From contig NZ_CP045455.1 of NCBI RefSeq assembly GCF_030060925.1, forward strand, positions 496,001 to 560,000: a stretch of DNA of 64,000 bases, written 5' to 3'. A program made the position numbers and the translations under genes. The notes under the pieces were generated by a model. It worked only from the letters and a program-made list of their open reading frames with translations, did not search any database and was not told the origin of the DNA. Each line of letters begins with the position of its first letter. Within the stretch, counting starts at the first letter, position 1. Below are positions 49,817 through 54,075 of the stretch, in pieces. Origin of the DNA: Spiroplasma sp. SV19. GTDB lineage: Bacteria > Bacillota_I > Bacilli_A > Mycoplasmatales > Mycoplasmataceae.

Positions 49817-51017
49817 TTATCCAAAATTGTAAAATTTTTTGATATTTAATAGCACATTAATTTTATTCATTTTTGCTAATTTTAAGTACAATAAGTTTTT
49901 ATATGTTTTATATGCATAGGCTTTTGCCCCATATCCCAAAGTTGATTTAATAAATCAAGATATATCACTTTCGGCCGAAACTCCAATATTGTATTCTAAT
50001 TTTTGATTTTGAATTCCCTGCCGATGATTCTTAATATATCTTGCTAAATCAGTTTTTTTTAAAATCTTAGCAATCTTCAATAACTGATCACATTTACCGT
50101 GTATAAATAAGTTATAACATTTATAGTATAAATCAATTTTAGGTTGAGTTTTTCTTCCTTTTAAAAAGGCATTTCTTAGTTCTTTGGCAAAATGAAAACG
50201 ATCTAAAACGTAAGTTGCTCCCAAAAAGGATGCAGTTTCCATAATTCAACCGTCCCCATCGCCACCAACAATAAATTTAATTTTTTCAGGTAGAATATAG
50301 TACTTATCTAATTCCATTAATATTCTTTGAACATAATCTTGAGTGTTAATTTCGCCTGTTTTTTGCTCTTTTAATATAACAAAACCTCTTTTATTTGCTA
50401 ATACTTTTCTGTTATATTTACATTCATTGAAATTAAATCCAGTATTAAATGTTGTTATTCTACATCTAAATTTCTTAATATTTTTGCCATCTCGTAAAGT
50501 AACAAATCCCTCATCCATAAAAATATAAAGATATAAGTCATTTCTTAAATCTACTTTTTCAAAATTATTTAATAATTGACTACTAAAATGTTCAATATCA
50601 TATTTTCTAATAATATTTGAAATTGTCATTCTAGTTAAATTAATATACGGAAAACAATGCAAAATATCTTTTTGTCTTTTTCCCTCTGCTAATTCCAGTA
50701 TCTTTAATTCTAAGTTTAATGTTATTTTTTTCCTTTTTAAAACCCCTATTTTACCATCTACAAAGGCTTTATTTTCTCATTCCTCATTTTCTTTATTTCA
50801 TCTACGATAAATTCTTCGGGTATAAGTTAATTCGCCACATTCATCTACTATTCTTCTAGATCGTTTTTCTTTAACAGATCATCCATATTTTTTATATTCT
50901 TTTTTAGAAAATATTACATCATCCATATTTTTAATATTTTCTGTAAATAGAATTTTACTTTCTTCATACTTTTTAGCAAAAAATAAACTAATAAAATCAG
51001 TTCTTTTTTTCTAACAA
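49817..51017 (-). mobile_element. UPF0236 / ISLre2-type transposase gene, one frameshift
   Basis: About 399 residues when joined. C-terminal core features: YIFMDEGFVTLRDGKN, FIVGGDGDGWI, ATYVLDRFHFAKELRNAF and HRQGIQNQKLEYNIG, which match the UPF0236 transposase-like family common in mollicutes. An N-terminal TTG at 51017 follows GAGGTG, but its frame ends after 9 codons; removing one A from the A7 run at 51004-51010 connects it to the rest (TDFISLFFAKKYEESK). Element ends were not delimited; a weak similarity between sequences near 49750 and 51045 could be inverted ends. Confidence 0.7.
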
Positions 51018-51100: not shown

Positions 51101-52822
51101 ATGACATATAATAAAAAAAAGACTACTAGTTATTATCATTTAAATAAAAAATATGATCTTAATTTTAGTGATTACAACTTTGGTTTTGATTGAGAAGTAT
51201 TTAAAGATTTTGTCCCTGATGTATATGCTAGATATTTTACATCTTCTTGTTTTTTTAAATTTGTCTCTGCAGGTCGTGGGACAAATAAAACATGAGTTCA
51301 TATAGGATATAAATTCTTTTTAGGATGCAATTTTTTTGATACATCATCTAATATTTTAAGAAGATACGCAAATACTCACGACGATACAACATTCGGTGAC
51401 GCTATAAATGTATGTAATTTTTTATATGATAAATATGGGATTGATTTAGGACCTGATAATGAAAACGGCATTGAATGACCTAAAAATTTAAAAGAGGGTG
51501 GCGAAATTATATTCCCTAGCGGTGTAAGGATAGCATTTGCCGGTTATGCAAATGGTAATAAGATTATGGGAAAAGTAGGAAAAGGAACCGGGATTCTATC
51601 TGCATGAACTGATGAAATGATACATGCCGAAGAAAAAGAAATTTTAACAGATAAAGAATTAGATAAACGTTATAATAATTTACGAATTTCTATGTTTAGA
51701 TCAAAAAGTTTAAAAGTTTCGTATGAAAAATATATTGATGAAAATGGTGTAGAACAATATGATCTTGATTCCCCTATCCCGATTGAAGAATGAGAATGAA
51801 CTTTTAAAGAATGAGATTTTTTGAAGCAAGAATATATAACTGTTACTACATATTTTCATAAAACATATTCTAACGAATTTACTTTCAATCCATTTGACAA
51901 ATACCATATATTCTATAAAAAATTTGTAACTCCATTTCTCCCACTAAATGATCGTATTAAAAATATCTTAAAAGATAAAAATCAAATTTATTCTGAAAAT
52001 AAACAAGCTTTTAATGGACTAGGAGTTTTTAATTTGCGTTTAACTATGGGTGCTGTTTGAGATAACATACCTCAAATTACAAAAAAATTAGTACTAGCAA
52101 ATAAAGATGAAAGACCTGATCTTTATGAACTTGAATATTACGGTTTTGAATATAACGACAGCGACCCAAGTATTTATGTATTGAGAAATTATAGAAAATA
52201 TATAAAAGAATTTAATTTAGATAACTTTTATAATAAAGAAACTAAACAATACGAATTTGATTTGTATTCAATTGGGATTGATTATGCTAATGGTAGTGAA
52301 GATGACACAGTATTTTTATTTTCAGGATATCAATTAAATGCAGATGGAACATACGATAAATATTTAATAGAAGAAAAAGTAGAGACACCTCAAAATAGAA
52401 TTAATTTATCAACAACTATTGAATATTTTGGCCAGTGAGTTATCGATTGTTTTGATAAATTTGATAGATTTGAAGAGGCCACATTCCACTATGATATTAA
52501 TGGACATGATTTTATGCAAACACTACAAACAGAACTTTATGAATATATTGGATATAAAATAAAAATGTTTAAGGCTATTAAACATAAGAGTACTTTAAAT
52601 AAAGATGCCGGTCTTAATAATAGAGTTACCTGGTTAAGAAAAATGTTTTCCCAAAATAAAGTATACGGCAATTTAGAATCCCTCCCACATTTAGATCAAT
52701 GTTTAAGTGAACTAAAATTTGGTGATAATAATACAAACATACCTGATCCAAAAATGTATCAAGATCCTTATGACGCATTATTTTATGGTTCTTACCCGTA
52801 TAGATTTAAAATGAATATATAA
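51101..52822 (+). CDS. Phage terminase large subunit
   Basis: DNA-packaging motor, 573 residues. ATPase domain: Walker A-like SAGRGTNKTW (56-65), Walker B ILSAWTDEM with catalytic Glu (about 165-172). Nuclease domain: YSIGIDYANGSEDD (about 390), a second acidic site THFHYDINGHDF-like ATFHYDINGHDF, and DPYDALFYGSY near the C-terminus. AAGGAGGG is a strong start signal. Many UGA Trp. It is opposite in strand to the other structural genes and intact, unlike most of them. No small terminase subunit is seen here. Confidence 0.85.
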
Positions 52823-52838
52823 GCAACAAACTATTTTT

Positions 52839-53909
52839 TTATTTATTATATTTTTCAATTAATTCTTTATTAAAAAATTTTAAACGAGGATTTAATTTAT
52901 AATTCCAATCTGTACTATTTAATTCATAATCCATTATTTCACAAACAATTTCCAAATGATTATTAAATTCATCTTCTAAATAATTTAACTTCATTTGACT
53001 TCTATGAGGACAATTTTTGCAATCACTATATGAACAATTCCAAAATAATGATTTATTTCATAAATAATCATGATATTCAGTTCAAATTACATCAAACTTT
53101 TTATCATAGAATTATTTTTTAAACAAGGATATTTATTTTTATATAAAGGAGTATATTGAAATGGTGGAAGTAATTTATCGGGTTTAAAAGTAATTATTTT
53201 ACATAATAGTATCATACTATCAGCTTCTGAGCATCTTAAAACAACATGTGGATGAGACTTAGTATCTTCATCATCCATAGGTAGAACCAAATTATAAACT
53301 TTTCCTAAATGTAAATCACTAATTTTACTATCATCTTTAATTTCTAATTTTTCGTTAACATTATAATTTTCTTTGCTTATCATTCAGTCTAACCACTTTT
53401 CTCTTAAATCTACATATTTTTAAAATATTCTATTGCTAATTTAAACTCTTTTTTATATAAATCTAAATGTTTAGTAACGTCCATTTTCTGATCAGAAAAT
53501 GGAATTTTTCTTTTTTTCTCATCTACTTCATTATAAGCAGGATCTCAATGAGTAATTTCATATAAATCTTCACTATCTGAATCTTTAAAAAACTCATAAA
53601 TTTTATCAATAAATTTAATGATTTTTTCATCTTTAAGCAACATTTTTTTAGTAAAGTTAAATACTTCAGTTTTAGAAATTCTGACTTTTTTAATTACTGG
53701 GCCATTTGTTCAGGCTTCTTCATCGTTAGGATCAAATAATGGTTCATTGTTTAAAATTAAAAAAAACACTTGAGCTAAATGCATTATCTTATAAAGCATA
53801 AATTCTCCTTTATACATTGACATATTATTAAATGTTAACAATGTATCATCACAAAACATATTACGATTTTTTTAATTAATAATCTTGCTATATCAATAGA
53901 ATCGTACAT
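52839..53909 (-). pseudogene. Panacea (DUF4065)-domain protein with extra C-terminal domain, three frameshifts
   Basis: Starts at MYDSIDIARLLIKK after GGAAGG. Adding one base to each of three runs (A7 near 53872, A5 near 53414-53418, T run near 53098) gives a single 357-residue protein. The N-terminal 110 residues fit the Panacea/SocA-like fold: DIARLLI, then MLYKIMHLAQVFFLI, EPLFDPNDEEAWTNGPV. Known Panacea proteins are antitoxins or phage-defence linked. The C-terminal half (about 200-357) has GKVYNLVLPMDDED, HPHVVLR, CKIITFK and a Cys cluster CSYSDCKNCPH; the first part faintly recalls MazF/PemK. Partly inference; without correction only fragments of 129 and 98 residues exist. Confidence 0.6.
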
Positions 53910-53935
53910 TTTCAACACCTTCCTTATTGTCTTAA

Positions 53936-53964
53936 CTTATATACTAATTATACACTTAATTCAA
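53936..53964 (-). promoter_or_regulatory. Promoter of the Panacea-domain gene
   Basis: Minus strand TTGAAT (-35, 53959-53964), 17 bases, TATAAG (-10, 53936-53941), 27 bases before the ATG at 53909. It lies inside the terminase remnant. Confidence 0.5.
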
Positions 53965-54075
53965 GTTAATAAATATTTAAATGAGTTAAAATTTGATAAC
54001 AATAATATAAATATATCTTATCCAACAATGCCTGAAGATGATTATGAAACATTATTTTATGGTGATTATTTTTTA
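53953..54075 (+). pseudogene. Remnant of a second terminase C-terminus
   Basis: Plus-strand frame HLIQVNKYLNELKFDNNN, then ISYPTMPEDDYETLFYGDYF. It parallels the end of the terminase at 52822 (HLDQCLSELKFGDNN, YQDPYDALFYGSYPYRF) at the protein level but is clearly diverged, so it is a leftover from a related, not identical, phage. It has no start and stops within the antisense small gene. Confidence 0.65.

What the first reader, a model, noticed from the sequence alone, without database searches (positions are those of the whole stretch)
52839..53909. A Panacea-domain gene inside the prophage, apparently fused to an extra C-terminal domain
Three one-base additions give a 357-residue protein with a Panacea/SocA-like N-terminus and a C-terminal half with HPHVVLR/CKIITFK and a Cys cluster. 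Panacea proteins usually act as antitoxins beside a separate toxin gene. A single chain with an added domain, in a Spiroplasma phage between terminase and tail genes, is unusual and could be a toxin-antitoxin or phage-competition module. The MazF/PemK resemblance is only a hint. It is also the nearest thing in this window to an undescribed system.
Basis: partly seen in the sequence, partly recalled or inferred. Interest (0 to 1): 0.75.

Follow-up and report, generated by a model that had tools for sequence, protein, structure and literature searches.

The report
Broken two-gene phage toxin-antitoxin pair
The supposed one-chain Panacea fusion is really two neighbouring genes, a Panacea antitoxin followed by its small toxin, in a Spiroplasma prophage; both copies here are frame-broken, while intact two-gene versions sit at the same place in related prophages of other spiroplasmas.

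Summary
The Panacea call is right: the middle reading frame matches PF13274 above Pfam's cut-off. The fusion is wrong. There the module is two genes: a 170-177 aa Panacea antitoxin, about 31 nt, then a 144-149 aa toxin in another frame, convergent with terminase. The other two are real frame breaks: one near the start of panA, one inside panT between a core and a Cys/His tail. No base was put back.

The toxin matches no family model. A profile comparison with PemK/MazF is above shuffles, in register from its N-terminus, but weak. Kurata et al. 2022 (PMC8832971) already describe Panacea antitoxins neutralising PemK/MazF-like RNases. Best reading: an ordinary type II panAT module carried by a temperate phage, decayed in this copy. 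Mildly new: a mollicute-phage panT lineage with a conserved Cys/His tail, and relatives that kept panA but lost panT.

The parts
53410..53909 (-). panA, Panacea antitoxin gene with one frame break near its start: ATG 53909 and the first residues (MYDSIDIARLLIKK) are in one frame, the rest (53859-53410, 149 aa, TAG 53412-53410) in another
   Evidence: translations; alignment to the intact 170-aa relative, 46% identical; intact relatives
53536..53796 (-). Panacea domain proper (PF13274)
   Evidence: genome search, 25.1 bits, 28 with frame neighbours, over cut-off; hmmscan of the ORF 30.8 bits, E 6.1e-7
53384..53409 (-). 26-nt gap between panA stop and panT ATG; purine-rich AAGAGAAAAG upstream of the ATG
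   Evidence: sequence; gap computed; the same gap is 31 nt in L040
53087..53383 (-). panT core: 98-aa ORF, N-terminal part of the toxin (LHLGKVYNLVLPMDDEDTKSHPHVVL...CKIITF), cut short by a frame break
   Evidence: 43-46% identical to the separate toxin gene of related prophages; PemK-profile score above shuffles and unrelated proteins
52838..53111 (-). panT C-terminal tail in a third frame, with C-x4-C-x2-C-x17-H-x4-C (putative zinc site)
   Evidence: BLASTP with the intact toxin tail, E 5e-4; same Cys/His spacing in L040 and L033, 0 of 200,000 shuffles
53918..53925 (-). Shine-Dalgarno AAGGAAGG ahead of panA ATG
   Evidence: sequence
53947..53952 (-). TATAAT within GTGTATAATTA upstream of panA; the same string lies upstream of panA in L040, L048 and L049
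   Evidence: sequence comparison; the consensus promoter scan gave no excess over shuffles, so putative
   Evidence: 44-45% identical to the ORF at the same place in L037-L039 and L089
53969..54068 (+). diverged relic of the terminase 3' end, upstream of panA
   Evidence: 78% identical to 52695-52794 over 100 nt

Best explanation
A two-gene type II toxin-antitoxin cassette (panA-panT) of a temperate spiroplasma phage, sitting between terminase and the structural genes and transcribed towards terminase. By homology, panA makes a stand-alone Panacea antitoxin that binds and neutralises PanT. PanT is most likely a small MazF/PemK-like RNase with a Cys/His zinc-finger-like tail (about even odds for the RNase part); freed of PanA it would cut RNA and stop translation, either stabilising the prophage or aborting a rival phage's infection. 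In this copy both genes carry a frame break, so PanT is predicted to be truncated and the module inactive. Shown: Panacea domain, two-gene layout, synteny, breaks. Inferred: binding, toxicity, RNase mechanism, purpose.
For: Panacea match. Intact homologues: PanA 170 aa, 31-nt gap, PanT 144 aa in another frame. Same gene order struct-panA-panT-terminase. The Cys-tail piece belongs to the toxin. 19 of 28 other genus Panacea loci have a separate downstream ORF of 94-155 aa on the same strand. Three prophage copies in G041 keep a Panacea ORF while panT is cut after 19 residues, as expected if the toxin can be lost but the antitoxin is tolerated. PemK profile: hhalign 18.7 over 90 columns, shuffles 10.3 +/- 2.0, 1 of 200 as high; the window core alone scores 19.1, 1 of 109 unrelated window segments reaches 18.65. 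Panacea antitoxins neutralise PemK/MazF-like RNases (PMC8832971).
Against: No Pfam, NCBIfam, PHROGs or PADLOC model recognises this PanT. hhalign probability against PemK is only 3%. AlphaFold failed for lack of relatives (pLDDT 35 and 40). Nothing shows that PanT is toxic. The MazF 'RP' motif reads HPH here.
Confidence: 0.85

Rival explanations
1. One reading: one chain, a Panacea domain fused to an extra C-terminal toxin-like domain.
For: The pieces abut on one strand and can be joined only by shifting frame three times.
Against: Three intact loci in two genomes have two ORFs in different frames with a stop and a gap of about 31 nt between them; no Panacea ORF in the genus exceeds 214 aa.
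Confidence: 0.02
2. Two-gene panAT as above, but PanT is not a MazF/PemK RNase: another small toxin with a zinc-binding tail.
For: No family model hits; PanT partners of Panacea are of many kinds (PMC8832971); the Cys/His tail is not part of classical MazF.
Against: In-register N-terminal match to the PemK profile for two toxins that are 43% identical to each other, above shuffles and unrelated proteins.
Confidence: 0.4
3. The genes are intact in the organism and the two breaks are assembly errors at A-rich runs.
For: Both breaks fall at or beside A-rich runs; homologues are open.
Against: About 49 kb of host genes in the same window read as long open frames, one of them 1452 aa; a relative prophage copy (L049) also has a broken panA start.
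Confidence: 0.2
4. The A-rich breaks are phase-variation switches or programmed frameshift sites that turn the module on and off.
For: panA is broken near its start here and, separately, in L049.
Against: The two breaks are not at the same site; the intact loci are simply open; prophage decay explains both.
Confidence: 0.05

Closest known systems
panAT toxin-antitoxin systems with a PemK/MazF-like PanT (Pseudomonas moraviensis, Bifidobacterium ruminantium; Kurata et al. 2022, PMC8832971)
   Same: two-gene module, Panacea antitoxin (DUF4065/PF13274), small adjacent toxin with MazF resemblance; Panacea pairs are also found in prophages
   Different: PanT here has no detectable family match and carries a conserved Cys/His tail; this copy is broken; hosts are mollicutes using code 4
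PF02452 PemK/MazF toxins
   Same: N-terminal pattern G-x-hydrophobic...P...hydrophobic strand aligns in register over about 90 columns
   Different: below significance by HMM; HPH in place of RP; Cys/His tail absent from classical MazF
SocA antitoxin (NF047745, SocAB)
   Same: shares the Panacea domain
   Different: 18 bits against a cut-off of 190: not SocA proper

Membership tests
Panacea (PF13274) antitoxin | profile match above gathering score | tested here: met
   30.8 bits vs 25.7; relative in L040 37 bits
panAT two-gene TA module | Panacea gene next to a separate small toxin gene, same strand | tested here: met
   L040: 170 aa, 31 nt, 144 aa; window: TAG, 26 nt, ATG
panAT two-gene TA module | toxin inhibits growth and Panacea protein neutralises it by binding | not testable with these tools
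   needs expression assays
PemK/MazF toxin (PF02452) | profile match above gathering score | tested here: not met
   no PF02452 hit in window or L040 toxin; the own genome has no PF02452 match
PemK/MazF toxin (PF02452) | MazF barrel fold | tested here: inconclusive
   AlphaFold pLDDT 35 and 40; hhalign above shuffles but low probability
PemK/MazF toxin (PF02452) | sequence-specific RNA cleavage | not testable with these tools
   biochemistry needed
Single-chain Panacea-toxin fusion | both parts in one frame in intact homologues | tested here: not met
   separate frames and genes at three loci
SocA antitoxin (NF047745) | score over curated cut-off | tested here: not met
   18 bits vs 190

The most novel reading that the evidence does not exclude
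PanT of this phage lineage is a new toxin class paired with Panacea: a small core with a Cys/His zinc-binding tail unlike described PanTs, passed among distant spiroplasma clades by one phage family, with antitoxin-only copies acting as anti-addiction genes.
Probability: 0.15. Interest if true: 0.45.

Novelty: new member of a known kind. Interest (0 to 1): 0.25.

Why it matters
It settles the layout: no new fusion architecture, but Panacea toxin-antitoxin pairs are common in spiroplasma genomes (8 of 14 in the genus), a lineage not mentioned in the main text of the Panacea papers searched here. The Nriv7 pair is intact and could be tested directly. The prophage copies that keep the antitoxin but have lost the toxin give a natural comparison for what these cassettes do for a phage.

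Tried and rejected
Fusion reading: rejected on homologue layout. Relatives of the toxin: none in viral contigs with the core or the toxin alignment, and none in annotated phages or plasmids; panA itself none in annotated phages or viral contigs; terminase none in annotated phages. Solved structures by sequence: only chance-level hits. AlphaFold on two alignments gave pLDDT 35 and 40, so no fold search was run on them. The other spiroplasma PanT family (A4) is not detectably related to this one. Weak toxin hits in G354, G479, G116 and G092 have no Panacea-like neighbour among the ORFs listed and were dropped. One NCBIfam call failed on a range with stops and was redone.

Full report
What is in the sequence. 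On the minus strand from 53909 to 52838 there are coding pieces in three frames (code 4, TGA = Trp). The first starts at ATG 53909, after a good ribosome site (AAGGAAGG, 53925-53918), and reads MYDSIDIARLLIKK before it is lost. The second frame (53859-53410, 149 aa) is a Panacea domain: PF13274, E 6.1e-7, 30.8 bits against a cut-off of 25.7 (whole-genome search). It is the only Panacea match in this genome. It ends with TAG at 53412-53410. After a gap of 26 bases, an ATG at 53383 opens a 98-aa ORF with the HPHVVLR...CKIITF stretch. The Cys cluster lies in a third frame that ends at 52838.

Where the gene boundary lies. Searching with the 98-aa piece found relatives (43% identity) in two other spiroplasma genomes. 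One is the Spiroplasma endosymbiont of Nebria riversi Nriv7 (NZ_CP065193.1; L040, L041). In all three loci, read with code 4, the Panacea gene is open from its start to its own stop (170-177 aa); about 31 nt later a separate 144-149 aa gene begins in another frame. That second gene holds both the core and the Cys cluster. The tail piece in the third frame belongs to the toxin: BLASTP to the intact tail E 5e-4, and the spacing C-x4-5-C-x2-C-x17-H-x3-4-C is kept (0 of 200,000 shuffles; the pattern was drawn from these same sequences, so this is descriptive).

Synteny. In L037 and L039 the order is s531 - s344 - s337 - s127 - struct473 - panA - panT - terminase, as in the window, at roughly 36-55% protein identity. 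It is one phage lineage carried by spiroplasmas that the search tool places in different families, with the cassette in the same slot.

The wider genus. Panacea genes occur in 8 of 14 genus genomes. Of the 28 loci outside this genome, 19 have a separate same-strand ORF of 94-155 aa starting within -20 to +220 nt of the Panacea stop, and no Panacea ORF exceeds 214 aa. The two-gene layout is the rule.

What the toxin may be. No model in Pfam, NCBIfam, PHROGs or PADLOC matches it. I built a 24-sequence PemK/MazF alignment from PF02452 hits in the class. Against it the toxin alignment scores 18.7 over 90 columns, in register from the N-terminus; column-shuffled versions average 10.3 +/- 2.0 with 1 of 200 as high, the reversed one 10.8. 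The window core alone scores 19.1; among 109 unrelated segments from this window 1 reaches 18.65. hhalign's own probability is 3%, with only about one effective sequence on our side. I take this as a lead, about even odds. Structure prediction failed (pLDDT 35 and 40). Kurata et al. 2022 (PMC8832971) found PemK/MazF-like RNases among the toxins that Panacea neutralises, so this would be an expected partner.

State of this copy. The breaks fall at or beside A-rich runs. Host genes over about 49 kb of the same window read open, one of 1452 aa, so decay is likelier than poor assembly, though raw reads were not available. In G041 three further prophage copies keep a Panacea ORF (178, 137 and 178 aa) while the toxin is cut after 19 residues. 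The 137-aa one, L049, has its own break near the panA start.

Limits. Toxicity, neutralisation and RNase activity are inferred from the family, not shown. I did not put back any base; all searches and folds used the pieces as they stand or the intact homologues.

Verdict. An ordinary kind of system, correctly spotted but misjoined: a decayed panAT pair of a spiroplasma phage.

Noticed in passing
window 53969-54068: A 78%-identical relic of the terminase 3' end (52695-52794) lies upstream of panA; in L037-L039 and L089 a relic of panT's first 20 residues lies upstream of panA instead. Perhaps remains of an older tandem copy of the cassette.
   Followed up: partly
L048, L049, L051 (G041): Prophage copies keep a Panacea ORF but the toxin gene is cut after 19 residues and runs into the terminase 3' end: antitoxin without toxin.
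   Followed up: partly
L008, L010, L012, L024, L026: Other Panacea genes in the genus have other small partners (134-156 aa); most overlap the Panacea gene by a few bases. The L010 partner scores 27.9 against the PemK profile, higher than the window toxin.
   Followed up: partly
window 49817-50926: Transposase-like ORF next to terminase; relatives of the same ORF lie near the related prophage in L037.
   Followed up: no
window 53480-53503: Perfect 10-bp inverted repeat TCCATTTTCTGATCAGAAAATGGA inside panA followed by a T-rich run on the + strand; terminator-like.
   Followed up: no
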